In this document: positions 15,513 to 34,023 of the stretch, one piece after another
Numbering within the stretch: position 1 is the stretch's first letter
Layout of the letters: the number at the start of each line of letters is the position of its first letter
Source of the DNA: Nocardia goodfellowii
GTDB taxonomy: Bacteria; Actinomycetota; Actinomycetes; Mycobacteriales; Mycobacteriaceae
Assembly (NCBI RefSeq): GCF_017875645.1
Contig: NZ_JAGGMR010000001.1
Location: 6,014,001-6,078,000, forward strand
Direction: 5' to 3'
Length of the DNA stretch: 64,000 nt
Position numbers and translations under genes: made by a program
The notes under the pieces: model-generated
The model's input: only the letters and a program-made list of their open reading frames with translations
What the model was told of the DNA's origin: nothing
The model's database searches: none

Positions 15513-16445
15513 GTGAGCCAGTACGCGAAGTCGACGGCGAGCACCTACGAGCTGCCGCATCTGGACGCGCTCGAGGCCGAGTCGGCATACATATTCCGGG
15601 AAGTCGCAGCGACTTTCGAACGTCCGGTGCTGTTGTTCTCCGGCGGCAAGGACTCGGTGGTGATGTTGCACCTGGCGGCGAAGGCGTTCTGGCCGGCGCC
15701 GCTGCCGTTCCCAGTGCTGCACATCGACACCGGGCACAATTTCGACGAGGTGATCGACTATCGCGATCGCACGGTCGAGAAGTACGGTCTGCGGCTGGTC
15801 GTCGGGAGCGTGCAGGACGATATCGATGCCGGGCGGGCGGTCGAGGAGACGGGGCCGCGCGCCTCCCGGAATCGCTTGCAGACCACCACCTTGCTGCGCG
15901 CCATCCGCGAAGGTGGTTTCGACGCCGTGTTCGGTGGCGCCCGCCGCGACGAGGAGAAGGCGCGCGCCAAGGAGCGGGTATTCAGTTTCCGCGACGAATA
16001 CGGGCAGTGGGACCCGCGCAACCAGCGGCCCGAGCTGTGGAACCTCTACAACGGAAAACATCGGCGCGGCGAGCACATCCGGGTGTTCCCGCTGTCCAAC
16101 TGGACCGAACTCGATATCTGGAACTACATCGCGGCCGAGCGGATCGACCTGCCGCCGCTGTACTACGCGCACCGCCGGACCGTGGTGCAGCGCGACGGCA
16201 TGCTGTTGGCGCAGACCCGGTTCCTGGAACTGCTCGAGGGCGAACAGCCCTTCGAGACGACCGTGCGCTTCCGGACCGTGGGCGATGCCACCTGCACCGG
16301 CTGTGTCGAATCCACCGCCGCCACACCGGACGAGGTGGTCGTCGAGGTCGCCGCCACCCGCATCACCGAACGCGGGGCCACCCGCGCCGACGACCGCATC
16401 TCCGAGGCGGGCATGGAAGATCGCAAGCGAGAGGGCTATTTCTGA
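15513..16445 (+). CDS. cysD: Sulfate adenylyltransferase subunit 2
   Basis: A 310-residue protein of the PAPS-reductase-like PP-loop family. The ATP pyrophosphate loop [15 protein letters not shown] is at residues 40-54. [30 protein letters not shown] and [11 protein letters not shown] are CysD signatures, as is the C-terminal region around VGDATCTGC. With CysN it makes adenosine phosphosulfate from ATP and sulfate in the cytosol. GTG 15513 is the start; a TAGTTT box six bases upstream suggests leaderless expression. Its TGA overlaps the ATG of cysNC by one base. The product feeds cysteine synthesis or the nearby sulfotransferase. Confidence 0.95.
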
Positions 16446-18277
16446 TGACCACGCTGCTGAGACTGGCCACGGCGGGCAGTGTGGACGACGGAAAGTCCAC
16501 GCTCATCGGCCGGCTGCTGTACGACTCCAAGACCATCTTCACCGACCAGCTGGCCGCGGTGGAACGCACCAGCCGGGACCGCGGTGACGCCTACCCGAAT
16601 CTGGCGTTGCTCACCGACGGTCTGCGCGCCGAGCGCGAGCAGGGCATCACCATCGATGTCGCGCATCGCTATTTCGCTACGCCCAGGCGGAAGTTCATCA
16701 TCGCCGACACCCCCGGGCACATCCAATACACGCGCAATATGGTGACCGGCGCGTCCAACGCGGACCTGGCGTTGATCCTTGTCGATGCGCGCAAGGGCGT
16801 GGTCGAGCAGACACGCCGGCACGCGTTCCTGGCCGGCCTGCTCGGTATTCCGCACCTGGTGTTGTGTGTCAACAAGATGGACCTCGTCGACTGGTCGCAG
16901 GAGCGTTTCGAGGAGATCCGCGAGGAGTTCGCCGGTTTCGCCATGAAACTCGACGTCTCCGACCTGACGTTCGTGCCGATGTCGGCGCTGCACGGGGACA
17001 ATATCGTGCACCGTGGCGCCAGCATGCCGTGGTACGAGGGCACTCCCCTGCTGCACCACCTGGAGGAGGTGCACATCGCCTCGGACCGGAACCTGATCGA
17101 CGCCCGGTTCCCGGTGCAGTACGTAACCCGCAGTCACGCAATGGATTTCCGCGGCTACGCCGGTACGGTAGCGGGTGGGGTGTTCAAGGCGGGTGACGAG
17201 GTCACCGTCCTGCCGTCCGGCTTGACGACCACGGTCACCGCGATCTGGGGCCCGGGCGGCACACCCATCGCGGAAGCCTTTCCCCCGCAGGCGGTTACGC
17301 TACAGCTGGGCCACGACATCGACATCTCCCGCGGCGACCTGATCTGCCGCCCCGCCAACCGGCCACAACTGGGGCGCGACATCGATGCGATGGTCTGCTG
17401 GTTCGCCGAGGACGCGCAGCTCACGCCCGGCGCCACCTATACGGTGCGGCACACCACCCGGGCGGTCACCGCCGAGATACGTACGCTGGACTATCGCCTC
17501 GACGTGAACACGCTGCACCGTGACGAGAATCCGCAAACCCTGTCGCTCAACGAGATCGGGCGCGTCCAGCTGCGCACCCGCCAGCCGCTGCTGTTCGATC
17601 CGTACCGTCGCAACCGCAACACCGGCAGCTTCATCCTGGTCGACGAGACCACCGGCAATACGGTGGCGGCGGGCATGATCACCGGGCCCACCCTGCCGTC
17701 GGCCCGCGTGGTCTGGCATTCGACCGCGGTCGGGCGCGACGAGCGCGCCACCCGCGGTCTCACGGTATGGCTGACCGGCCTCTCGGGTTCCGGAAAGTCC
17801 ACGGTGGCAGTGGAATTGGAACGGCGACTGGTCGCCGCCGGCCGTCCCGCCTTCCTGCTCGACGGCGACAATCTGCGGCACGGGCTCAACGCCGACCTCG
17901 GGTTCTCCGCCGAGGACCGCGTCGAGAACATCCGCCGGGTAGGGGAAGTCGCCCGATTGTTCGCCGAATCCGGTGCGGTCGCGGTGGTTTCCCTGATCAG
18001 CCCGTACCAGGCGGACCGGGACAAAGCCCGAGCCGCGCACGAGGCGGCGGGTATCCCGTTCGTCGAAGTCTTCGTCGACACGCCCCTGGAAATCTGCGAA
18101 TCCCGTGATCCCAAGGGCATGTACGCGAAGGCCCGAGCGGGCGAGATCCGCGGCTTCACCGGAATCGACGCGCCCTACGAGCGGCCCGAACGCCCCGACC
18201 TCGTACTGCGCCCGGAAGACGGCGACCCCGCGACCATGGCGCAGTCGATCATCGCTCGCCTGACCGCCTTCGACTGA
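16445..18277 (+). CDS. cysNC: Bifunctional sulfate adenylyltransferase subunit 1 / APS kinase
   Basis: A 610-residue fusion. The N-terminal GTPase (CysN) has GSVDDGKST at residues 10-18, the DTPGH switch II motif and NKMD. Beta-barrel domains follow to about residue 430. The C-terminal APS kinase (CysC) has a second Walker [10 protein letters not shown], near residues 445-453, then [11 protein letters not shown] and [13 protein letters not shown]. CysN drives APS synthesis with GTP hydrolysis and CysC phosphorylates APS to PAPS, the donor for sulfotransferases. The fusion is typical of mycolic-acid actinobacteria. It is coupled to cysD through a TGATG overlap. Confidence 0.95.
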
Positions 18278-20163: not shown

Positions 20164-21165
20164 ATGCGTGTCAGCCCCGAAGCACTACCCGCAGCCCTGG
20201 AACCGATTGTGCGCCAGCACATCCCCGGCGCCGGGATCGCGGGCTGGAGGCGCGCCGAACAAGGGTTCGCCACCGAAACCTATCTTTTCGACGCCGTCGA
20301 TCCCGCCGGCAGCACGACAGGTTTGGTGTTTCGCCGCCCGCCCGAGGTCTCCCTGTTCCCCGACTACGATCTGCGCCGGCAATACCTGGTGATGAAACGT
20401 CTGGCCGGCACCGCGGTTCGGGTGCCGGCGGTGCGCTGGATCGATACCGAAGCCACGGCCCTGGGCTCGCCCTATTTCGTGATGGACCGCATCGATGGGG
20501 GCCGTACCCCCAGCGACGTCCCGACCTACCACGAAACCGGCATGTACTTCGACGCGAGTCCCGCCGAGCGCACCAAGATCTGGCGGGGGTGCCTCGACGC
20601 GATGGCCGAGGTTCATCGACTGGACCCGGCGGCGCTGCGCCTGGACTTCCTGCGCATGGACCGTCTGGGCGCCGACCCGATCGAACAGGCGATCAACTAC
20701 CTCGACCGGGCCGTGCACTGGGCGGCCGAGACACCCGCACCCACCATCGAACGAGCGCTGAGCTGGCTGCGCGACCATCGGTATCGACCCGACCGCATCG
20801 CTCTGTGCTGGGGTGACAGCCGCCTGTCGAACATCCTGTACGGCGCTGACTTCGAAGTGCTCGGCGTGCTCGACTGGGAGACGGCCCGGCTCGGCGATCC
20901 GGAAGCCGACCTCGCCTGGCTGCTGTTCACCGACTGGCTGTGCAGCGACTTCCAGGGCCGCGCCGCACTCGCGGGCACACCCAGCCGGGAGGAAGCGATC
21001 GCCTACTACGAAAGGAGCGCCGGGCGGCCGGTTCGTAACCTGCTGTTCAACGAAATCCTGTCCGCGATCTTGCTTTCCGTGCCACTGTTGCGGATGTCGA
21101 GTCATCTCGGCATGGGAGATCTCTCGGCGGTGTGCGTGGCGCGATTGGACCAGTTACTCCACTGA
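20164..21165 (+). CDS. Phosphotransferase-family (aminoglycoside-phosphotransferase fold) protein
   Basis: A 333-residue protein of the APH/choline kinase fold. The ATP-binding lobe has VFRRPPEVSLFP (lysine position altered) and the hinge YFVMDRIDGG. The catalytic loop reads LCWGDSRLSNILY (HGD-type loop with Trp in the first position), and the metal-binding loop is VLDWETARLGDPEADLAWLL. The phosphate acceptor is unknown; close relatives lie in fatty-acid and steroid gene clusters, often next to acyl-CoA dehydrogenases, and some act on coenzyme-linked or hydroxylated lipids. GTG 20155, overlapping the previous stop, is an alternative start. Confidence 0.8.
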   Translation: MRVSPEALPAALEPIVRQHIPGAGIAGWRRAEQGFATETYLFDAVDPAGSTTGLVFRRPPEVSLFPDYDLRRQYLVMKRLAGTAVRVPAVRWIDTEATALGSPYFVMDRIDGGRTPSDVPTYHETGMYFDASPAERTKIWRGCLDAMAEVHRLDPAALRLDFLRMDRLGADPIEQAINYLDRAVHWAAETPAPTIERALSWLRDHRYRPDRIALCWGDSRLSNILYGADFEVLGVLDWETARLGDPEADLAWLLFTDWLCSDFQGRAALAGTPSREEAIAYYERSAGRPVRNLLFNEILSAILLSVPLLRMSSHLGMGDLSAVCVARLDQLLH

Positions 21166-21235
21166 TCCGCGGCGTGCGCCGGGCCGTAGAGCTGCGTCGT
21201 ATAGATTCTCAGCGACGAGGCTTGAAGGAGGAACG

Positions 21236-22225
21236 TTGACGGATTCCCTACTGCACCAGCGCTTTCCCGAGGTGGCGTCGGAGCTTCCGTTTCTCCGGCT
21301 CGGCGACACGCCGACCCCCGTCCGCGAGCTGCCGCTCGGCATCCGCATCCCGGTGTGGTGCAAGGACGAAAGCGGCTACGGCTCCGGCGGCTGGGGCGGT
21401 AACAAGATCCGCAAACTGGAATGGCTGCTGCCCGACGCCCAGCGGCGCGGCACCAAGACCATCGTCACCGTCGGCGGCACCGGCACCAACTGGGGGCTGG
21501 CGGCCGCGCTCTACGGCCGCGAGCTCGGGCTGGACATCGCGCTGGCGCTGGTCGACCAGCCGGTCGACGACCATGTCCGCGCCCAGCTCGCGCGCCTGGA
21601 GGCCTCCGGCGCGACGCTGCATCACACGCGCTCCAAGTTTCGCACCGTCCTCACCGCGCCGTGGCTGATGCTGCGCCACTCCAGCGGCCGCAAACTCCCC
21701 TACTACCTGCCGGTCGGCGGCTCCTCGCCGATCGGCACGCTCGGCTATGTGGAGGCGGCACTGGAGCTCGCCGCCCAGGTCCGTGCCGGTGACCTGCCCG
21801 AACCCGCGCACATCGTGACCGCGGTCGGATCCGGCGGCACGGCCGCGGGCCTGGCGCTGGGCCTGCGTCTGGCGGGCCTGCGCACCCGGGTGCTCGGCGT
21901 CGTCGTCAACGACACCCTGCCCTTGGAGGCCAAGCACATCGTCGAGCTGGCGCACCGCGCCGAAGAGGTGCTGCGCGAGCGCGGGGCCCAATTCGAGCCG
22001 GTCGGACTCACCCCCGACGACGTGACCATGCTGCGCGACTGGCTCGGCCCGGGCTACGGCCACGAGACCCTCTCCGCGATCGCCGCCCGCGACCGCGCCA
22101 ACATGGTCGGCCTGCATCTCGAAACCGTATACACCGCAAAGGCTTTCGCCGCTATCACGGATCTCTCGGCGCGCGGCGACCTGGATGGCCCGACGCTGTT
22201 CCTCAATACCTACGGCCCGCGCTGA
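21236..22225 (+). CDS. PLP-dependent D-cysteine desulfhydrase / ACC deaminase-like enzyme
   Basis: A 329-residue fold-type II PLP enzyme. GGWGGNKIRKLEWLLPDA carries the PLP-binding lysine (NKIRK), VTVGGTGTNWGLAAALYGRELGL is the phosphate-side region, and GSGGTAAGLALGLRLAGL binds the PLP phosphate. The branch contains D-cysteine desulfhydrase and 1-aminocyclopropane-1-carboxylate deaminase; the NKIRKLE context fits either. The start is TTG 21236, with AAGGAGGA at 21225-21232. A desulfhydrase would release sulfide, which fits the sulfur genes on both sides, but the substrate is not proven by sequence. Confidence 0.8.
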   Translation: MTDSLLHQRFPEVASELPFLRLGDTPTPVRELPLGIRIPVWCKDESGYGSGGWGGNKIRKLEWLLPDAQRRGTKTIVTVGGTGTNWGLAAALYGRELGLDIALALVDQPVDDHVRAQLARLEASGATLHHTRSKFRTVLTAPWLMLRHSSGRKLPYYLPVGGSSPIGTLGYVEAALELAAQVRAGDLPEPAHIVTAVGSGGTAAGLALGLRLAGLRTRVLGVVVNDTLPLEAKHIVELAHRAEEVLRERGAQFEPVGLTPDDVTMLRDWLGPGYGHETLSAIAARDRANMVGLHLETVYTAKAFAAITDLSARGDLDGPTLFLNTYGPR

Positions 22226-24135: not shown

Positions 24136-24239
24136 ACCGAGACGGTAGGAGTTCGCGCATTGGAATCCTCGTGATCCGAAATCCCGCCGCCTCGGTCGAG
24201 GTGGCGTAAAGCACCGGCGCACCGCTGTTTCCCCAGGTA

Positions 24240-24307
24240 GCGCCGGGAGGCTACCGGCGCAATACCAGCGCCGGTACGAGTGGCCCGCTCGTGGCGGCGA
24301 GCGGGCC
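24240..24307 (+). promoter_or_regulatory. Structured region with mutually exclusive hairpins upstream of the GntR/AprA-like operon
   Basis: The 221-bp gap 24114-24334 is rich in symmetry. GCGCCGG (24240-24246) pairs with CCGGCGC (24254-24260). TACCGGCGC (24252-24260) can instead pair with GCGCCGGTA (24268-24276), so the two stems exclude each other. A third stem, GGCCCGCTCG/CGAGCGGGCC (24282-24291 with 24298-24307, 10 bp, 6-nt loop), ends 27 bp before the GntR start. The layout resembles an anti-terminator/terminator arrangement, but I cannot match it to a known riboswitch and do not know where transcription starts. Confidence 0.4.
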
Positions 24308-24334: not shown

Positions 24335-25114
24335 ATGCAGGTCAGCGAGCCACAGGACGATCAGCGAGCGCCCGCGCCGGTACGGCGCTTACGTGCCGAC
24401 CAAGCGCGCCGGGTGGCCGATCTGATCCGCCATCAGATCCACGCGGGCGCCTTCGGCGACGTGCTGCCCAGCGAACAGCAGCTGGCCGCCGAACACGACG
24501 CCTCCCGCAACACCGTGCGCGAAGCGCTGACACTGCTCAAGGACGAGGGCCTGATCGATCGGCTGCCCAAGGTGGGCACTCGCGTCGCCGCCCGCAAATA
24601 CGATCACGGCCTGGACGCGCTGCTCGGCCTGCAGGAAACCTTCCAGGGCCATGGCACTGTCCGTAACGAGGTGCGCGCCGCGCTACGGATCAGCGCGCCG
24701 CCCGCCGTCGCGCGCCGCCTCGGACTGGCGGCCGGCGCCCGCGTGGTCTATCTGGAGCGGCTGCGCTACCTCGCGGAGCTCCCGCTGAGCCTCGATCTGA
24801 CCTACCTCACCCCCGAGATCGGCGACCAGGTGCTCGACCACGATCTGGCGAGCACCGACATCTTCGTGCTGCTCGAGCAGATCAGCGGACAGCGCCTCGG
24901 CTCGGCCGACCTGTCGCTGGAGGCCGTCGCCGCCGACCCGCATACCGCCGCCACGCTGGACGTTCCCGCGGCCGCCCCGCTGCTGATGCTGGAGCGGCTC
25001 ACCCGCCTCGACGACGGCACTCCCGTGGACTTGGAGTTCATCCGCATGCGCGGCGACCGAATCACCATGCGCGGCAACCTGACCCGCACCAACCCCGAAT
25101 GGAAGGTCATCTGA
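24335..25114 (+). CDS. GntR/HutC-family regulator with UTRA domain
   Basis: A 259-residue regulator. The winged helix is at residues 25-90 (VADLIRHQIHAGAFGDVLPSEQQLAAEHDASRNTVREALTLLKDEGLIDRLPKVGTRV), typical of GntR. The C-terminal UTRA domain runs from about residue 110 to the end (RRLGLAAGARVVYLERLRYLAELPLSLDLTYL ... PVDLEFIRMRGDRITMRG). UTRA domains bind small ligands such as sugars, amino acids or phosphonate- and sulfonate-like anions. It is the first gene of a six-gene operon; its TGA overlaps the ATG of the ferredoxin by one base. It probably senses the transported substrate and autoregulates. Confidence 0.88.
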   Translation: MQVSEPQDDQRAPAPVRRLRADQARRVADLIRHQIHAGAFGDVLPSEQQLAAEHDASRNTVREALTLLKDEGLIDRLPKVGTRVAARKYDHGLDALLGLQETFQGHGTVRNEVRAALRISAPPAVARRLGLAAGARVVYLERLRYLAELPLSLDLTYLTPEIGDQVLDHDLASTDIFVLLEQISGQRLGSADLSLEAVAADPHTAATLDVPAAAPLLMLERLTRLDDGTPVDLEFIRMRGDRITMRGNLTRTNPEWKVI

Positions 25115-25341
25115 TGGCGCTCGCGAATCAGCGTACCGATATCCCCGTCACCATCGACGAATCACTGTGCATCCAGGGCTGCACGCTGTGCGTCGAGATC
25201 TGCCCGCTGGACTCCCTGGCCATCAACCCCGAGAACGGCAAGGCCTTCATGCACGTCGACGAGTGCTGGTACTGCGGCCCCTGCGCGGCGCGCTGCCCCA
25301 CCGGGGCAGTGACCGTCAATATGCCCTATCTGTTGCGCTGA
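25114..25341 (+). CDS. 2[4Fe-4S] ferredoxin, AprB-like
   Basis: A 75-residue electron carrier with two clusters: CIQGCTLCVEICP and CWYCGPCAARCP. The insertion between the clusters (DSLAINPENGKAFMHVDECW) and the CW.C pattern recall AprB, the iron-sulfur subunit of adenylylsulfate reductase, rather than a generic ferredoxin, although AprB is longer. It is separated from the AprA-like flavoprotein by the transporter genes but lies in the same operon, so it is the likely electron partner. The ATG overlaps the GntR stop. It is cytosolic, with no export signal. Confidence 0.85.
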   Translation: MALANQRTDIPVTIDESLCIQGCTLCVEICPLDSLAINPENGKAFMHVDECWYCGPCAARCPTGAVTVNMPYLLR

Positions 25342-25355
25342 ATCCGGAAAGACCC

Positions 25356-26768
25356 ATGAAGAGAACACGTTTCGCACCCGTCCTGCTGACCGCCGCGCTC
25401 GCGTTGACCGGCTGCTCGCTGGAACAGGCGGCGGCCGGTGACACCGTCAAGGTCGTCATCGGCTACCAGTCCAAGACCATCAACACCGTCACCGCCGGAA
25501 CCCTGTTGCGCGCCAAAGGTTTCCTGGAGCAGCGGCTGAACCGGCTGTCCGGCGCGAAATACCAGGTCGAGTGGCAGGACTACGACACCGGTGCGCCGAT
25601 CACCGCGCAGATGGTCGCGGAGAAGATCGATATCGGATCCATGGGCGACTACCCGGTACTGATCAACGGTTCCCGCACGCAGGCCAGCGAACGCGCCGCG
25701 ACCGCCCTCGTGTCGGTCACCGGCTACAACCCCAAGGGCGCACTGAATATGGTCGTGGTGGCGCCGAATTCGACCGCCCGCACCCTCGCGGACCTGGCCG
25801 GGCAGAAAGTCTCCGCCAGTGTCGGCTCGGCGGGGCACGGCACGCTCGTGCAGGCGCTGACCCGGGCCGGCATCGATCCGAAGTCCGGTGTCGAGGTGCT
25901 CAACCAGCAACCGCAGATCGGCGCTTCGGCGCTGGAATCCTCTCAGGTCCAGGGTCTTTCGCAGTTCGTGGCCTGGCCCGGTCTACTGGTTTTCCAGAAC
26001 AAGGCCCGGCTGCTCTACGACGGCGCCGAACTGAACGTGCCCACCTTCCACGCGGTGGTGGCGCGCCGTGACTACTCCGCCAAGCATCCCGAGGTGCTCG
26101 ATGCCTTCCTGCAGGCGCAACTGGACGCCACCCAGTTCCTCAACGACGAACCTGTCGAGGCAGCCCAGATCGTGGCCGAGAACTCGGGCCTCCCAGCCGA
26201 AGTCGTGTACCTCTACAACGGGCCGGGCGGCACCTCCTTCGACGCCACCGTCAAGCCGCACCTGGTGGAGACGCTGAAAAGCGATGTCACCTACCTGAAG
26301 TCGATCGGCGACTTCGCCGAACTCGACATCGACGAGTTCGTCGACGACACCGCACTGCGGAAGGCGTTCGCCGAGCGCGGGCAGAACTACGACAGCGCGC
26401 TGGCGAACACCGCCAACCCGTCGCTGATCCGGGGCAACGACCCGCTGAACGGCAGGACGGCCGACAATCCCGCGACGGCGAGCGAGATCTGGTTCGCCGG
26501 TCAGGACGCCACGCAACCGGCCGCCGATCCGACGAGCCTGCTCCGGGCCGTCAAACAGGGTCGGGCGCAGGGAAAGACGATACGGGCCGCCTATGTGCCC
26601 GACGCCGAACTCGGCACGCGCTGGTTCGCGGACAAGGCGGTGTGGGTGCGCGACGGGGAGACCTATCTGCCCTTCACCACCGCCGCCGCGGCGGCGCGAT
26701 ATCTGGACCGGCATCCGTCGGGTGTGACCGTCGGCTTCGAGCAGGCTGTCACCGAGGTGCGGGTATGA
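25356..26768 (+). CDS. ABC transporter substrate-binding lipoprotein (SsuA/TauA/NMT1-like, extended)
   Basis: A 470-residue lipoprotein. The signal peptide MKRTRFAPVLLTAALALTGC ends in the lipobox LTGC, so the mature protein is anchored outside the membrane. The binding fold follows, starting TVKVVIGYQSKTINTVTAGTLLRAKGFLEQRL, with KIDIGSMGDYPVLINGS and KVSASVGSAGHGTL typical of nitrate/sulfonate/taurine binding proteins. Normal SsuA or TauA is about 320 residues; here about 130 extra residues follow (DNPATASEIWFAGQD ... TYLPFTTAAAAARYL), an unassigned extension. It is 14 bp behind the ferredoxin and overlaps the permease by four bases. Confidence 0.85.
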   Translation: MKRTRFAPVLLTAALALTGCSLEQAAAGDTVKVVIGYQSKTINTVTAGTLLRAKGFLEQRLNRLSGAKYQVEWQDYDTGAPITAQMVAEKIDIGSMGDYPVLINGSRTQASERAATALVSVTGYNPKGALNMVVVAPNSTARTLADLAGQKVSASVGSAGHGTLVQALTRAGIDPKSGVEVLNQQPQIGASALESSQVQGLSQFVAWPGLLVFQNKARLLYDGAELNVPTFHAVVARRDYSAKHPEVLDAFLQAQLDATQFLNDEPVEAAQIVAENSGLPAEVVYLYNGPGGTSFDATVKPHLVETLKSDVTYLKSIGDFAELDIDEFVDDTALRKAFAERGQNYDSALANTANPSLIRGNDPLNGRTADNPATASEIWFAGQDATQPAADPTSLLRAVKQGRAQGKTIRAAYVPDAELGTRWFADKAVWVRDGETYLPFTTAAAAARYLDRHPSGVTVGFEQAVTEVRV

Positions 26769-27628
26769 GTACCGCCGCGGTCCTCGATCTGGAAGCGGCG
26801 CCGATAGCCGAGCCGGGCGCGGCAGAGGCCCGATCCCGGGCGGGACGCGCGGTGTGGCGTTCCCGGATCGTCCGCGTCGCGGCCGTGGTCGCCGCGATCG
26901 CGGTATGGCAGTTCCTGACCGCCAACGACCTCCGGCTCTGGGTGCGGTTCGACACGCTGCCGACCGTCACCGAGATCGGCCGGGCGTTCCGGACTCAGCT
27001 GAGCACCCAGACCTTCTATCTGGATCTCGGCCAGTCGTTGATCCGCATTCTCACCGGTTTCGGCCTCGCCGCGGCACTGGGCGTGAGCACCGGTGTGGCG
27101 CTGGGTCGCTCGCGGTGGTTCGCCGACATCGTCGGGCCGCTCACCGAACTGGCCCGGCCGATCCCGGCCATCGCCGTGGTGCCGGTGGCGATCCTGCTGT
27201 TCCCCAGTGACGAGGCGGGAATCGTCTTCATCACCTTCATCGCCGCCTACTTTCCCGTCATGGTCTCGACCCGGCACGCGGTGCGCGCACTGCCGACGCT
27301 GTGGGAGGACTCGGTGCGCACCCTCGGCGGCAACCGCTGGGACGTGCTGTGGCGAGTCGTGTTGCCCGGCAGCCTGCCCGGCGTGTTCGGCGGCTTGTCC
27401 GTCGGCATCGGCGTGGCCTGGATCTGCGTGGTCTCCGCGGAGATGATCTCCGGCCGGCTCGGTGTCGGATACCGCACCTGGCAGGCCTACACCATCGTCG
27501 ACTACCCCGGCGTATTCGTCGGGATCATCACCATCGGCGTGCTCGGTTACACCACCTCGGCCGCGGTGGAATTGCTCGGCCGCCGCGCCACCCGCTGGCT
27601 GCCGCGAGTCCGGGAGGTCGCGAAATGA
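26765..27628 (+). CDS. ABC transporter permease (SsuC/TauC-like)
   Basis: A 287-residue inner-membrane protein with about six hydrophobic segments. The ATPase-contact (EAA) loop is around TLWEDSVRTLGGNRWDVLWRVVLPGSLPGVFGGL, with the conserved glycine after the helix turn. The sequence pattern FDTLPTVTEIGRAF and ELARPIPAIAVVPVAILLF matches permeases of sulfonate, taurine and nitrate importers. It overlaps the binding protein by ATGA and the ATPase by ATGA, which gives tight stoichiometric coupling. It forms the membrane channel of the importer encoded here. Confidence 0.9.
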   Translation: MSTAAVLDLEAAPIAEPGAAEARSRAGRAVWRSRIVRVAAVVAAIAVWQFLTANDLRLWVRFDTLPTVTEIGRAFRTQLSTQTFYLDLGQSLIRILTGFGLAAALGVSTGVALGRSRWFADIVGPLTELARPIPAIAVVPVAILLFPSDEAGIVFITFIAAYFPVMVSTRHAVRALPTLWEDSVRTLGGNRWDVLWRVVLPGSLPGVFGGLSVGIGVAWICVVSAEMISGRLGVGYRTWQAYTIVDYPGVFVGIITIGVLGYTTSAAVELLGRRATRWLPRVREVAK

Positions 27629-28377
27629 CCGGTAGCGGAACACGATTGCGCCTGGACCGGGTGCACCTTTCCTATGGTGGCGCACCGGTGATCACCGATC
27701 TGTCGCTCGACGTGCGGCCGGGCGAGATCCTGGTGCTCACGGGGCCTTCGGGCTGCGGGAAGTCCACGGTGCTGCGCGCGCTGGCCGGACTGCTGCGTCC
27801 GGACTCCGGGCGGGTGCTGGCCGACGACGTGGCGGTCACCGGCACCGATCGCGACCGGGCGGTGGTCTTCCAGGACAACGCCCTGCTCCCCTGGCGCACC
27901 GTGCGCGCCAATATCGAACTGGCGCTGAGACTTCGCGGCGAACCCCGCGCCGGGCGCCGCGAGCGCGCCGAGAAATGGATCGAGGAGGTCGGGCTCACCG
28001 GCTTCGCCGACTTCCTGCCCAAGAGCCTGTCCGGCGGCATGCGCCAGCGGGTGCAGCTCGCCCGCGGACTGGCCGGCGCCCCGCGCGCGGTGATGATGGA
28101 CGAGCCGTTCGGCGCGCTGGACACCCAGACGCGCGCCACCATGCAGCGCTTGCTGATCCAGACCTGGCAGACCCATCCGAGCACCGTCGTGTTCGTCACC
28201 CACGATGTGGACGAGGCGCTGCTGCTCGGCGACCGGGTGGCCGTGCTCGGCCGGGCCGGTCAACCGCTGCGCGCCCTGCTCGACATCCCGCGTCCCCGTA
28301 CTCCCGGCGTCGACCGCGCCGCCGCGCGCGCCGAAATCATCGCCGCGCTCGGCCGGCCCGAGCTCGCCGCCCTCTGA
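27625..28377 (+). CDS. ABC transporter ATP-binding protein (SsuB/TauB-like)
   Basis: A 250-residue ATPase with Walker A GPSGCGKST (about residues 39-47), Q-loop VVFQDNALLPW, signature LSGGMRQR, Walker B AVMMDEPFGALD and the switch histidine in VFVTHDVDEAL. The QDNALLPW phrase is characteristic of the nitrate/sulfonate/taurine ATPase family. It powers uptake through the preceding permease. The start overlaps the permease stop (ATGA). Confidence 0.93.
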   Translation: MTGSGTRLRLDRVHLSYGGAPVITDLSLDVRPGEILVLTGPSGCGKSTVLRALAGLLRPDSGRVLADDVAVTGTDRDRAVVFQDNALLPWRTVRANIELALRLRGEPRAGRRERAEKWIEEVGLTGFADFLPKSLSGGMRQRVQLARGLAGAPRAVMMDEPFGALDTQTRATMQRLLIQTWQTHPSTVVFVTHDVDEALLLGDRVAVLGRAGQPLRALLDIPRPRTPGVDRAAARAEIIAALGRPELAAL

Positions 28378-28396
28378 CCGAATGGTGTTGTCACCG

Positions 28397-31090
28397 ATGG
28401 ACATTCCTGATTTGACCGAGACCACCCGCCTGGACTGCGACGTCCTGGTCATCGGCGGTGGTACCGCGGGCACCATGGCCGCCCTCACCGCCGCCGAGGC
28501 CGGCGCGAACGTACTGCTGCTGGAGAAGGCGCACGTGCGGCACTCCGGCGCGCTCGCGATGGGCATGGACGGCGTGAACAACGCCGTCATCCCGGGCAAG
28601 GCCGAACCCGAGGACTACGTCGCCGAGATCACCCGCGCCAACGACGGAATCGTCGACCAGCGCACCATCTATCAGACCGCGACCCGCGGTTTCGCCATGG
28701 TGCAACGGCTGGAACGCTACGGCGTCAAATTCGAGAAGGACGAATACGGGGAGTACGCGGTGCGCCGGGTGCATCGCTCCGGGTCGTACGTGCTGCCCAT
28801 GCCCGAGGGCAAGGATGTGAAGAAAGCGCTGTATCGCGTGCTGCGGCAACGGAAGATGCGCGAGAAGATCCGGATCGAGAATCGGTTGATGCCGGTGCGG
28901 GTGCTCACCGAGAGCGGCCGGGCCGTCGGAGCCGCCGCATTGCACACGCGCACCGGCGAATTCGTCGCCGTCGGCGCGAAAGCGGTGATCCTGGCGACCG
29001 GGCCGTGCGGACGGCTCGGGCTGCCCGCCTCGGGATATCTCTACGGCACGTACGAGAATCCCACGAACGCGGGTGACGGTTACGCGATGGCGTACCACGC
29101 GGGCGCGGAACTGTCGGGGATCGAATGCTTCCAGATCAACCCGCTGATCAAGGATTACAACGGACCCGCCTGCGCCTACGTCGCCAACCCGTTCGGCGGC
29201 TACCAGGTCAACGCCCACGGTGAGCGGTTCGTCGATTCCGACTACTGGTCCGGCCAGATGATGGCCGAGGTCAAACGCGAGATCGAATCCGCCCGGGGCC
29301 CCATCTATCTCAAGGTTTCACACCTGCCCGAGGAGACCCTCGACACGCTCGAAGGCATCCTGCACACCACCGAACGACCCACCCGCGGCACCTTCCACGC
29401 CAACCGCGGTCACGACTACCGCACGCACGACATCGAGATGCACATCTCCGAAATCGGTTTGTGCGGTGGGCATTCCGCCTCAGGTGTCTGGGTGGACGAG
29501 CACGCCCGCACCACGGTGCCCGGTCTCTACGCCGCCGGTGACCTGGCCTGCGTCCCGCACAACTACATGATCGGCGCGTTCGTCTTCGGCGACCTCGCGG
29601 GCGCGCACGCGGCGGGGACCCTCGCCGCGGTGCCCGCGCCGGCGGCGCTTCCGGAAGACCAGCTCGCCGCCGCGCACGAGCTGATCTACCGTCCGCTGCG
29701 GAACCCGGACGGCCCGCCCCAGCCGCAGGTCGAATACAAACTCCGGCGCTTCGTCAACGACTATGTGGCGCCGCCGAAAACCGCCGCGAAACTGTCGATC
29801 GCGGTGGAGACCTTCGAACGGATGCGCGGCGACGTCGACGGAATCGGCGCTCGCACACCGCATGAGCTCATGCGGGCCGTCGAGGTCTCCTTCATCCGCG
29901 ACTGCGCCGAAATGGCGGCTCGCAGCTCGCTCACCCGGACCGAGTCCCGCTGGGGTCTGTACCACGATCGCGCGGACATCCCCGAACGCGACGACCAGGC
30001 GTGGCGCTACCATCTGAATCTGCGCAAGAACGCCGACGGCGCAATGGAATTCCGGAAGCGGCCGGTCGCGCCCTACCTGGTGCCGGTGCCCGGCCTGGAC
30101 GACGTGCCCAGCACCGACCGCACCGTGCTCGCCGTCGAACAACCCGAGCTGGTCGGGCAGCGCGCTCCCCAGATCACCGAGGCGGCCGAGGCCCCCCGCG
30201 AGCCCGTCGCTCCCCCGTCACCGCGACTGGTCAGCCTGCTGGCCCTCGATTCGCCCACGGTGCCCGACCTTTCGGGGTATCTGGCCGACTCCGACCCGCA
30301 GGTGCGGGTCGCCGCGATCTCGGTGCTGACCGAGAACACACCGGACGGGTTCGCCCCGATCCTGGTGCGCGCGTTGCGCGATCCCGCGCCGGCCGTGCGC
30401 CGGACCGCGGCCGAAGGTCTGCGCGAACTCGTCGAGGTCCTGCCGACGTCGACCGGGTTGGCCGACCACCTGGACTCCCCCGACCCGCTCGTTCGCGCCA
30501 CTGTGGTCGATCTGCTGCGCGCCCTGAAGACCGGTACGACCGCGCAGTTCACCGCCGCCCTGTCCGACTCGGATCACCGGGTGCGCATCGAGGCCGTGCG
30601 CGCCCTGGTCTCGCTGGACGACCGGCACGGTGTGGCCGCGGCCGCCGCGGACCACAGCCGCGAAGTGCGCGTCGTTGTCGCCCAAGGGCTTTCGGTGATC
30701 GGCAACGGCGGTCACGAGGTGGTGCGCCGGCTGACCGCCGACCGGGATCCGCTGGTCCGAGCCGCGGCGCTGACCGCGTTCGGCGCGCTGGGCGCCGAGA
30801 CCGCTGCCGATATCACCGATCTGACTACCGCGCTGCGGGATTCCGCGTGGCAGGTACGCGTGGGCGCGGCCCGCGGACTGACGGGCGCGGATCCCGAAGC
30901 CGCGGTACCGGTGCTGGCCGATGCCCTCGACGATCCGCACCTGGATGTCCGCAAGGCCGCGGTGCTGGCGCTGGCCACCTGGCCGGACCACGGCGCGGCC
31001 CAGGACGCGCTGCGCAGGGCCACCGCCGACCGCGACGCCGACGTGCGCGCCTACGCCCGGCGGGCCGCTACTCAACCGGTGGCGCACTGA
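28397..31090 (+). CDS. APS-reductase-alpha-like flavoprotein fused to HEAT repeats
   Basis: An 897-residue protein with two parts. Residues 1 to about 590 are a fumarate-reductase-fold flavoprotein: DVLVIGGGTAGTMAALTAAEAGANVLLLEKA near the N-terminus, GLYAAGDLACVPHNYMIGAF for the FAD, and an AprA-like C-terminal block with SRWGLYHDRADIPE and FRKRPVAPY. This block resembles adenylylsulfate reductase alpha. Residues about 610-897 are nine HEAT-like repeats, each with a DPxVRxAA core (for example DPQVRVAAI, DPLVRATVV, DADVRAYARRAA). The fusion and the ferredoxin/importer operon suggest a redox enzyme acting on a transported sulfur compound; that is inference. ATG 28382 is an alternative start. 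Confidence 0.85.
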   Translation: MDIPDLTETTRLDCDVLVIGGGTAGTMAALTAAEAGANVLLLEKAHVRHSGALAMGMDGVNNAVIPGKAEPEDYVAEITRANDGIVDQRTIYQTATRGFAMVQRLERYGVKFEKDEYGEYAVRRVHRSGSYVLPMPEGKDVKKALYRVLRQRKMREKIRIENRLMPVRVLTESGRAVGAAALHTRTGEFVAVGAKAVILATGPCGRLGLPASGYLYGTYENPTNAGDGYAMAYHAGAELSGIECFQINPLIKDYNGPACAYVANPFGGYQVNAHGERFVDSDYWSGQMMAEVKREIESARGPIYLKVSHLPEETLDTLEGILHTTERPTRGTFHANRGHDYRTHDIEMHISEIGLCGGHSASGVWVDEHARTTVPGLYAAGDLACVPHNYMIGAFVFGDLAGAHAAGTLAAVPAPAALPEDQLAAAHELIYRPLRNPDGPPQPQVEYKLRRFVNDYVAPPKTAAKLSIAVETFERMRGDVDGIGARTPHELMRAVEVSFIRDCAEMAARSSLTRTESRWGLYHDRADIPERDDQAWRYHLNLRKNADGAMEFRKRPVAPYLVPVPGLDDVPSTDRTVLAVEQPELVGQRAPQITEAAEAPREPVAPPSPRLVSLLALDSPTVPDLSGYLADSDPQVRVAAISVLTENTPDGFAPILVRALRDPAPAVRRTAAEGLRELVEVLPTSTGLADHLDSPDPLVRATVVDLLRALKTGTTAQFTAALSDSDHRVRIEAVRALVSLDDRHGVAAAAADHSREVRVVVAQGLSVIGNGGHEVVRRLTADRDPLVRAAALTAFGALGAETAADITDLTTALRDSAWQVRVGAARGLTGADPEAAVPVLADALDDPHLDVRKAAVLALATWPDHGAAQDALRRATADRDADVRAYARRAATQPVAH

Positions 31091-32496: not shown

Positions 32497-34023
32497 ATGG
32501 TGACTTTCCTGGTCGACGCGGTGACGTCGGCGGCGCAGCCGCTGGCTACGCGACCGCTGGCCGAGTTTTATCCGGACGCACTGCTCATCGGCGGAGATCC
32601 GGAAACGCCGATGCTCACGCCTGATGGCGTGGACCCGCTGTTGAGTGCGGTGGGGCGGGCGTTCGCCGAGCATCGGCCGCTGGTGTTGTCGCCGGACGCG
32701 GTGTGGCTGACTATCGCACAGGGACTGGCCAGGCACATCCGGTTGCATGCCGAGCAGCTGCGGGAGCAGTTGGTCGAACACCAGGGGCAGGCGACACTGA
32801 CCGTCACGGTCGGCGATTCGATGCCCACCGACCGGGATTCGTGGTCGCACGTGGTGGAACTGTTCGACAAGGCGCTGTCCGCCGAGACGCGGTACAGCGG
32901 GTTGTTCGAATGCGACTTCTCCACCAGCACCGCGGTGGAGCGGGTGGCGGGCCGGGTCGTCGCGCTGGACGCCTATGCGGAGTACTTCGCGATGTGGATG
33001 GTGTGCGTCTGCGGGATTCCGTCGATCACGCTGACCGGAACAGTCGAGGACTGGCGCGAAATTCGTGACCGGGTGGACGCGCTCGCCGACTTCGGACTCG
33101 AAACCTGGTGCCGCGCACTGGCTCCGGTCATCGAGGAATTCGTGCGGGCGGCGGACGGCGGGGCCGATATCGCTTTCTGGCAGCGCATATACAAACCGGC
33201 CGACGCCTACGGCGAGTCGGTGATCACCGGGTGGATAACCCGGCTGTACCCGTATCTCCAGGGCGGGACCACCTACGACATCCCGAACTCGATGCTGGAG
33301 TTGCCGCTGGACGAACCGCGCGAGGTGACCGTCGACGGACGCCGCTACGACGGGCCGGGCATCAGCAGCACGATGGTGCCCGCGACGCTGTCGCGGGCGG
33401 TGATCAATGTCAATGACCGCGTGGCAGGGCACAACAGGGCGGTCGCACTGCGGGCCGGGCTGGTCGGTGTGGCGCAAGACGAGGACGGGTCGTTACGCCC
33501 CCTGCCGGGCTGGCACCTGGAGACCGTCACGGTCGATATCGACGAGGTCATCGACCGCATCGAGCGAGAACACGCGGTGACGGCCGCCGTGCCGAGGAAG
33601 TACTGGGAGCGCGTCGGCGCCGACGTGGCCGCGCTCTATCGTCGCATCGGTTCGGCCACCCTGTTCGACGGCGCCTGGCGAATCCTGCCGTGGGCCGAAC
33701 ACCGGAACGTCCGGGTGTCCAGCACCGGCTACACCGAGATCACGGTGATGTTCGAGCTCGCCGACGGCAGCTGCGTGGGCGCTCTCGACACCATCGATCC
33801 GGGATCGCGTTCGATGATCACACACTGGGTGCGCTGCCGGGTCGCAGCGGCCGGGGATCCGTCCGCGCCATCGAAGGCCCGTCTGCTGGGCCCGCTCAGC
33901 GCGGCGCGGGTATGCGGAACCTCGTTGCCGCTGTTGCTCACCGCCGCGCTGGACCACGGCGGCCGGATCACCCACACCGAAACGGGCGGGCTCGACCGGC
34001 TGCTGCGGCGCATCCATCGGTGA
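32497..34023 (+). CDS. DUF4419 protein
   Basis: A 508-residue protein with the DUF4419 pattern: an N-terminal PLVLSPDAVWLTIAQGLARHIRLHAEQLR, then FDKALSAETRYSGLFECDFSTSTAVERVAGRVVALDAYAEYF and TVEDWREIRDRVDALADFGLETWCRALAPVIEEFV, with FWQRIYKPADAYGESVITGWITRLYPYL. The family is found in fungi and scattered bacteria, and its function is unknown. The C-terminal 200 residues look like a separate beta-rich region (SMI1/Knr4-like is possible but not clear). The ATG follows a run of G at 32486-32491. It appears as a single-gene insertion between the MarR/SnoaL remnant and the oxidoreductase. Confidence 0.75.
   Translation: MVTFLVDAVTSAAQPLATRPLAEFYPDALLIGGDPETPMLTPDGVDPLLSAVGRAFAEHRPLVLSPDAVWLTIAQGLARHIRLHAEQLREQLVEHQGQATLTVTVGDSMPTDRDSWSHVVELFDKALSAETRYSGLFECDFSTSTAVERVAGRVVALDAYAEYFAMWMVCVCGIPSITLTGTVEDWREIRDRVDALADFGLETWCRALAPVIEEFVRAADGGADIAFWQRIYKPADAYGESVITGWITRLYPYLQGGTTYDIPNSMLELPLDEPREVTVDGRRYDGPGISSTMVPATLSRAVINVNDRVAGHNRAVALRAGLVGVAQDEDGSLRPLPGWHLETVTVDIDEVIDRIEREHAVTAAVPRKYWERVGADVAALYRRIGSATLFDGAWRILPWAEHRNVRVSSTGYTEITVMFELADGSCVGALDTIDPGSRSMITHWVRCRVAAAGDPSAPSKARLLGPLSAARVCGTSLPLLLTAALDHGGRITHTETGGLDRLLRRIHR

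What the first reader, a model, noticed from the sequence alone, without database searches (positions are those of the whole stretch)
24335..31090. Six-gene operon: UTRA-GntR, AprB-like ferredoxin, sulfonate-type importer and AprA-like flavoprotein fused to HEAT repeats
Seen: all junctions overlap by 1-4 bases or lie within 20 bp. The flavoprotein has AprA-like blocks (SRWGLYHDRADIPE, FRKRPVAPY), the ferredoxin has two CxxC-type clusters, and the importer is of the nitrate/sulfonate/taurine class. Known: AprAB reduces APS to sulfite in sulfate reducers, an unexpected function in an aerobic actinobacterium. Inference: the operon encodes uptake and redox conversion of an organosulfur or related oxyanion, with the HEAT domain as a docking platform. 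The binding protein also has a 130-residue extension. I know of no named system with this exact set, but I cannot search the literature.
Basis: partly seen in the sequence, partly recalled or inferred. Interest (0 to 1): 0.72.

Follow-up and report, generated by a model that had tools for sequence, protein, structure and literature searches.

The report
AprAB-like reductase operon with sulfonate importer
A six-gene bacterial operon, with relatives in soil bacteria, cyanobacteria and proteobacteria but no described function that we could find, looks like a machine that imports a sulfonate-type sulfur compound and uses a flavin and iron-sulfur enzyme to strip off its sulfur as sulfite.

Summary
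In detail: six same-strand genes (24335-31090), junctions -4 to +19 bp. The operon belongs to a widespread module: 79 of 98 genomes sampled from this genus (Nocardia, by its nearest matches), other Actinobacteria, and plasmids of Proteobacteria and Cyanobacteria. The flavoprotein is NCBIfam PRK13800, an equivalog family for which I found no described function. It forms its own clade beside AprA and the AprA-like PAPS reductase, apart from three SDH-like paralogues. It keeps AprA Asn74 and His398 but lacks Arg265, Trp234 and Arg317 in 32 of 32 members, so it is no ordinary APS/PAPS reductase; its ferredoxin keeps the relay Trp. HEAT is a separate gene elsewhere, including a second same-genus operon type that often has FdxA, an FprA-like reductase, Mrp and a YeiH protein (sulfite resistance). 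The binding protein is SsuA/TauA-like; its extension resembles NosL. Best reading: import of a sulfonate-type anion and flavin/Fe-S reductive release of sulfite for sulfur assimilation (0.5). Substrate and direction are untested. A conserved element lies upstream of the operon.

The parts
24203..24262 (+). conserved upstream element: two GGCGYAA repeats 53 bp apart with CAGGT between them
   Evidence: TGGCGYAA upstream of gntR in 55 of 74 loci against 35 of 3700 control windows; pair in 35 of 74 against 8 of 3700; CAGGT in 58 of 74 against 1298 of 3700; coordinates (3 hits of the pair in the own genome)
24335..25114 (+). GntR/HutC-type regulator with UTRA domain
   Evidence: PF00392 59.9 bits, PF07702 112.3 bits
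25114..25341 (+). 2x[4Fe-4S] ferredoxin, AprB-like, with invariant Trp52 in CWxCxPC
25356..26411 (+). SsuA/TauA-like lipoprotein binding protein, core
26412..26768 (+). C-terminal NosL-like extension of the binding protein
26765..27628 (+). ABC permease (Ssu/Tau/Nrt class)
27625..28377 (+). ABC ATPase (Tau/Ssu class)
28397..30106 (+). AprA-like FAD flavoprotein part of PRK13800
   Evidence: NF010374 1738.6 bits, cut-off 1196; NF006131 875.9 bits, cut-off 587
30221..31090 (+). HEAT-repeat part, fused here, separate gene in other lineages
   Evidence: PF13646 109.4 bits

Best explanation
A sulfur-scavenging module. The lipoprotein binding protein captures a sulfonate-type anion (R-SO3-: an alkanesulfonate, or a sulfate ester or sulfamate) and hands it to the permease/ATPase. 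In the cytosol an AprAB-like flavo/iron-sulfur heterodimer, with its HEAT partner fused on, receives electrons one by one through the two [4Fe-4S] clusters and the relay Trp of the small ferredoxin; reduced FAD attacks the sulfur (N5, as in AprA) and sulfite is released for assimilation. NADPH, a ferredoxin reductase and FdxA feed the electrons; HEAT docks or assembles partners; the GntR protein with the upstream element controls expression. Shown: gene set, family, conservation, retained N5-site Asn/His and relay Trp, SsuA/TauA-type fold with a sulfonate-contacting Gln and Gly, and, in sister operons and other phyla, neighbours for sulfite export or resistance, ferredoxin supply and Fe-S assembly. 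Inferred: the substrate, the reductive direction, sulfite as product, the roles of the HEAT and NosL-like parts, the electron donors of the fused type, the regulation.
Against: No biochemical, expression or mutant data were found. AprA Arg265 (Leu here), Trp234 (Tyr) and Arg317 (Met) are missing in 32 of 32, so the AprA mechanism cannot be carried over unchanged. Bicarbonate and nitrate proteins (CmpC 29.3, NrtA 28.6) tie with TauA and lie 2-3 Z units below the top SsuA row. Reductive cleavage of a plain C-SO3 bond by a flavin has no precedent that I know. The window's own fused-type operon does not carry the YeiH/FdxA/FprA/Mrp neighbours; that evidence comes from other operons. Sulfonate-related genes also occur in two of the five control stretches (hpsN/hpsO; LLM, SsuA and soxC), so LLM/SsuA neighbours count for little; a LysR gene like the split-type one was found in control L149.
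Confidence: 0.5

Rival explanations
1. Same uptake, but the enzyme cleaves a sulfur-sulfur or thiol-linked compound (thiosulfonate, S-sulfocysteine, thiosulfate) with help of active-site cysteines; sulfite and a thiol or sulfide are released.
For: Cys244, Cys259 and Cys356 are invariant in 32 of 32 members at the positions of AprA His259, Gly274 and Met395 (Gly274 lines the substrate channel; Met395 is three residues before His398), and are absent from the aligned AprA and PRK06854 rows (channel residues from PMC2211403 passages). Sulfite-related neighbours fit as well.
Against: The binding protein is nearest to alkanesulfonate/taurine binders. Distances of these Cys to FAD are not known: the model is weak there.
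Confidence: 0.15
2. The module reduces a non-sulfur substrate (a fumarate-like, nitrate-like or other oxyanion), and the sulfur neighbours are incidental.
Against: Tree and residues set it with AprA; YeiH, TauE, met or YedE neighbours in unrelated lineages.
Confidence: 0.15
3. It is an APS or PAPS reductase, or the reverse sulfite-oxidising enzyme; the window also holds cysD and cysNC about 6 kb upstream.
Against: APS-contacting residues lost in 32 of 32; NF005331, TIGR02061 and TIGR02060 cut-offs missed; I saw no cysD/cysNC in the 18 plasmid gene tables, nor among the 12 representatives read of the 30 most shared gene clusters of 80 loci; the own genome has two further, adjacent PAPS_reduct hits elsewhere; an importer would be pointless for APS.
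Confidence: 0.06

Closest known systems
AprA-like PAPS reductase of Methanothermococcus thermolithotrophicus (PDB 8a8o; NF005331/PRK06854)
   Same: FAD subunit plus 2x[4Fe-4S] ferredoxin subunit, relay Trp, Asn and His at the flavin N5 site; best solved relative
   Different: about 28% identity; equivalents of Arg265/Arg317/Trp234 lost (kept in 10 of 10 PRK06854 rows); no importer, HEAT protein or GntR mentioned in the passages read; score 271 against a cut-off of 557
Dissimilatory APS reductase AprAB
   Same: subunit plan and N5-site Asn74/His398
   Different: APS-contacting Arg/Trp set not kept; ferredoxin much shorter (75 aa against chains of 150 and 166 aa); AprA score 126 against a cut-off of 642
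SsuABC/TauABC sulfonate importers with SsuD/TauD
   Same: binding protein, permease and ATPase class; sulfonate-contacting Gln and Gly
   Different: extra NosL-like domain; coupled to a flavo/Fe-S enzyme in place of an oxygenase
Isethionate reductase IsrBHDK of Rhodobacter capsulatus (PMC11423573, abstract)
   Same: works like: reductive release of sulfite from a sulfonate for assimilation, with a sulfonate importer
   Different: nitrogenase-like and radical-SAM proteins; no relation in sequence claimed
NosL copper lipoprotein (PDB 7og7)
   Same: domain family of the extension of the binding protein (E 3.3e-5)
   Different: the Cys-Gly-Met stretch of 7og7 is not kept in the aligned rows; that it binds copper is recalled

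Membership tests
NCBIfam PRK13800 (NF010374) | curated full-length score | tested here: met
   1738.6 bits, cut-off 1196
Dissimilatory APS reductase AprA | curated score TIGR02061 | tested here: not met
   126.4 bits, cut-off 641.75
Dissimilatory APS reductase AprA | Asn74, Trp234, Arg265, His398 at the sulfate (PMC2211403 passages) | tested here: not met
   Asn and His kept 32 of 32; Trp to Tyr and Arg to Leu 32 of 32
Dissimilatory APS reductase AprA | Arg317/Leu278 clamp of adenine (PMC2211403 passages) | tested here: not met
   Met288 in 32 of 32; Ala 22, Thr 9, Gly 1 at Leu278
AprB | curated score TIGR02060 | tested here: not met
   30.8 bits, cut-off 135.65
AprB | relay Trp-B48 before the second cluster | tested here: met
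   Trp52 in the CWxCxPC motif invariant 14 of 14; equivalence with Trp-B48 judged from the motif, whose AprB form is recalled
PRK06854 / MtPAPSR type | curated score and clade | tested here: not met
   271.1 bits, cut-off 557; outside the PRK06854 clade, 100/99
SdhA/FrdA | curated score and clade | tested here: not met
   TIGR01812 156.4 bits, cut-off 567.3; apart from three own-genome FAD_binding_2 paralogues, taken as SDH-like without a check and on long branches
SsuA sulfonate-binding protein | TIGR01728 score | tested here: not met
   125.5 bits, cut-off 163.5
SsuA/TauA fold and sulfonate contacts | fold; TauA Gln30 and Gly61 | tested here: met
NosL (PF05573) for the extension | curated Pfam score | tested here: inconclusive
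   15 of 17 extensions match at E<=1, L099 with 31.2 bits over the cut-off of 24; as whole proteins 8 of 10 match but all under the cut-off; the window's whole binding protein had no NosL match
Sulfonate desulfurising enzyme | release of sulfite from a sulfonate | not testable with these tools
   needs enzyme assay

The most novel reading that the evidence does not exclude
A multi-phylum, oxygen-independent reductive desulfonase: an AprAB-like flavin-N5 enzyme with a rebuilt active site, a HEAT scaffold and a dedicated importer takes sulfur as sulfite from organosulfonates in aerobes and phototrophs that are thought to rely on oxygenases (SsuD, TauD) for this.
Probability: 0.33. Interest if true: 0.82.

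Novelty: new variant of a known kind. Interest (0 to 1): 0.62.

Why it matters
If right, a very large protein family (6958 of 7999 scored candidates match) marks an uncharacterised route for taking sulfur from organosulfur compounds that needs no oxygen, and its key enzyme is misnamed 'fumarate reductase/succinate dehydrogenase flavoprotein subunit'. It would extend AprA-type chemistry from activated sulfate to other sulfo-compounds, would bear on soil sulfur cycling and perhaps on degradation of man-made sulfonates, and would give HEAT and NosL-like domains new partners that can be tested at once.

Tried and rejected
Riboswitch or known RNA upstream: no Rfam family at gathering score in the window; only four sub-threshold matches upstream. 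GntR palindrome as operator: no inverted repeat stood out as shared; the shared signal is direct repeats. A genome-wide regulon of the paired element: 3 hits in the own genome against 13 for the reversed pattern, so the two other hits mean nothing. Extra neighbour genes in fused-type loci: the commonest non-operon cluster reaches 28 of 80 loci (a serine-hydrolase-like protein, listed from L025 to L079, mostly mycobacteria; name recalled); mycobacterial flanks look like a decarboxylase-nusB-efp side and a pyrR-pyrB-carA side (names recalled). Large proteins near L092, L089 and L102: Pyr_redox_2; NAD_binding_9 plus lactamase; ACR_tran - not taken as part of the system. NosL proteins in the class for comparison: 0 of 60 genomes. 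No NosL row appeared in the fold lists of the binding protein, but its extension was barely tested there. The flavoprotein model is weak round the FAD site, so no pocket claim is drawn from it; it was built with PRK06854 rows in its alignment, which may favour 8a8o. The ferredoxin row of L001 in A3 was in a wrong frame and was dropped; A4 uses 14 of the 19 other rows. L101 and L113 have no gene annotation and are left out of the 18-locus counts (by tblastn L101 has all seven modules). Only 11 of the 14 HEAT-less copies were fetched. Papers seen by passages, without the gene set: PMC8557817, PMC7661421, PMC11852219, PMC8792954, PMC10708946, PMC10433963, PMC6037834, PMC5011921; PMC8401276 names PRK13800 only as a domain label on a fungal HEAT protein. 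PMC8305402 reports a six-gene 'alkane sulfonate ABC transporter' operon, Bphy_7232-37, lower in a nifA mutant (passages); whether it is this module was not settled (no P. phymatum row among the 60 listed). Supplements were not open to me.
Full report
OBSERVATION. The window lies at G000:C1:6014001-6078000; the best GTDB matches of the flavoprotein are Nocardia (82-84% for L001-L012), so 'Nocardia' below is inferred for the unnamed same-genus genomes.

SPREAD. With the curated model PRK13800, 79 of 98 genomes sampled from the genus match at E<=1e-200, 78 over the cut-off, and 8 of 296 sampled across the phylum at E<=1e-100. 6958 of 7999 scored database candidates match residues 1-570. Of 207 plasmid records with any match 60 were listed; the first 51 are close relatives (55-73% identity, three of them over less than a third of the query) from Rhizobiales, Burkholderiales, Acinetobacter, Acidithiobacillus, Cyanobacteria and Actinobacteria among others.

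ARCHITECTURE AND THE HEAT PART. 76 of the 104 loci then in hand have gntR-fd-SBP-permease-ATPase-flavoprotein::HEAT in this order. Outside Actinobacteria HEAT is a gene of its own in the same cluster as flavoprotein and ferredoxin: 18 of 18 annotated plasmid loci (L089-L093, L095-L100, L102-L104, L109-L112), 15 of the 18 with the importer genes close by (L089, L092 and L104 have other or more distant ABC genes). Of 14 same-genus copies that looked HEAT-less I fetched 11: nine are complete operons of a second type, gntR-flavoprotein-HEAT-fd-SBP-permease-ATPase, and two are cut by an end but also show HEAT next to the flavoprotein; G350 and G357 carry both types on one contig. In the tree the 12 fused rows form one clade (100/99) beside the 4 split rows used (100/99); one fusion event is the simplest reading. 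Fusion and fission mark HEAT as a partner of the flavoprotein; whether it docks the ferredoxin, the transporter or an assembly factor is not known.

NEIGHBOURS. In the 11 split-type loci: YeiH 10, LysR 9, FdxA 9, FprA-like 5, Mrp 5; some contigs end before these genes. In 59 fused-type loci over 20 kb: 2, 2, 1, 1, 0. Pfam checks of single members: Cons_hypoth698 for YeiH, NUBPL for Mrp, LysR; the FprA-like protein shows only Pyr_redox_2, its name is recalled. FdxA, FprA-like and Mrp follow the ATPase gene directly in L118. In three cyanobacterial plasmids the module is followed by Mrp, YeiH and TauE, in Nostoc by Mrp; in Methylobacterium by FdxA and an annotated ferredoxin-NADP reductase. None of HEAT, YeiH, TauE, DUF971, Mrp/NBP35 or FdxA appears among 209 listed features in five 50 kb control stretches, one on each of five of these plasmids, while sulfonate genes do appear in two of them. 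YeiH is the main sulfite-resistance factor in Salmonella, under the LysR regulator YeiE (PMC12880088, abstract). Together: electrons probably flow in from NADPH, Fe-S proteins are matured, and sulfite is a likely product.

MECHANISM. Import of a sulfonate-type anion; one-electron steps through [4Fe-4S] clusters and Trp to FAD; attack of reduced N5 on sulfur; release of sulfite, to be used by sulfite reductase or exported. The bond cleaved (C-S, O-S, N-S or S-S) is open. A precedent for reductive, non-oxygenase release of sulfite from a sulfonate exists in another protein family (isethionate reductase, PMC11423573, abstract).

REGULATION. Upstream of gntR lie direct repeats GGTGGCGYAAT ... CAGGT ... 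CCGGCGCAAT. TGGCGYAA occurs in 55 of 74 fused-type upstream regions (35 of 3700 control windows) and 9 of 9 split-type ones (4 of 450); the 40-70 bp pair in 35 of 74 (8 of 3700) and 0 of 9 (0 of 450); CAGGT, a weak signal, in 58 of 74 (1298 of 3700). Among printed examples the repeat spacing is 53 bp in Nocardia and two mycobacteria, 54 in a third, and 63-64 bp in the one Gordonia and one Tsukamurella with a pair: one helical turn more, which speaks for a DNA-binding protein. Which protein is unknown.

LITERATURE. Seven searches of open-access papers aimed at the gene set found no study of it; three more served AprA, the PAPS reductase and YeiH. Subscription papers and supplements were not searchable. 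The main text of the IGTS8 sulfur proteome (PMC8557817) has no 'flavoprotein', 'fumarate reductase' or 'succinate dehydrogenase'.

VERDICT. Real, conserved, uncharacterised as far as I could find; AprAB-like but not AprAB; most likely a sulfonate-type sulfur-acquisition system. Interest 0.62.

Noticed in passing
window 15513-18277: cysD and a cysNC fusion (sulfate activation to PAPS) about 6 kb upstream of the operon; two further PAPS_reduct hits lie at C1:7447368-7448728. No sign that the upstream pair belongs to the operon.
   Followed up: partly
window 20813-22225: PLP enzyme of the D-cysteine desulfhydrase / D-cysteate sulfo-lyase group, below the NCBIfam cut-offs, with about 150 residues extra at its N-terminus.
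   Followed up: no
L114/L115 (G350) and L116 (G357): Both operon types, fused and split HEAT, on one contig in opposite orientation.
   Followed up: partly
mycobacterial loci, e.g. L037, L061, L074: The operon sits between what look like decarboxylase-nusB-efp and pyrR-pyrB-carA genes, a shared chromosomal slot (names recalled).
   Followed up: partly
L112:13972-14929: In Mesorhizobium sp. AR07 the HEAT gene is annotated as two overlapping frames, perhaps a frameshift; not examined.
   Followed up: no
L085, L086, L087: Three relatives from one unnamed actinobacterial genus show one stop inside the read-through flavoprotein match; L086 and L087 matches are also longer. Not examined.
   Followed up: no
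window 32497-34023: DUF4419 protein just downstream, unrelated.
   Followed up: no
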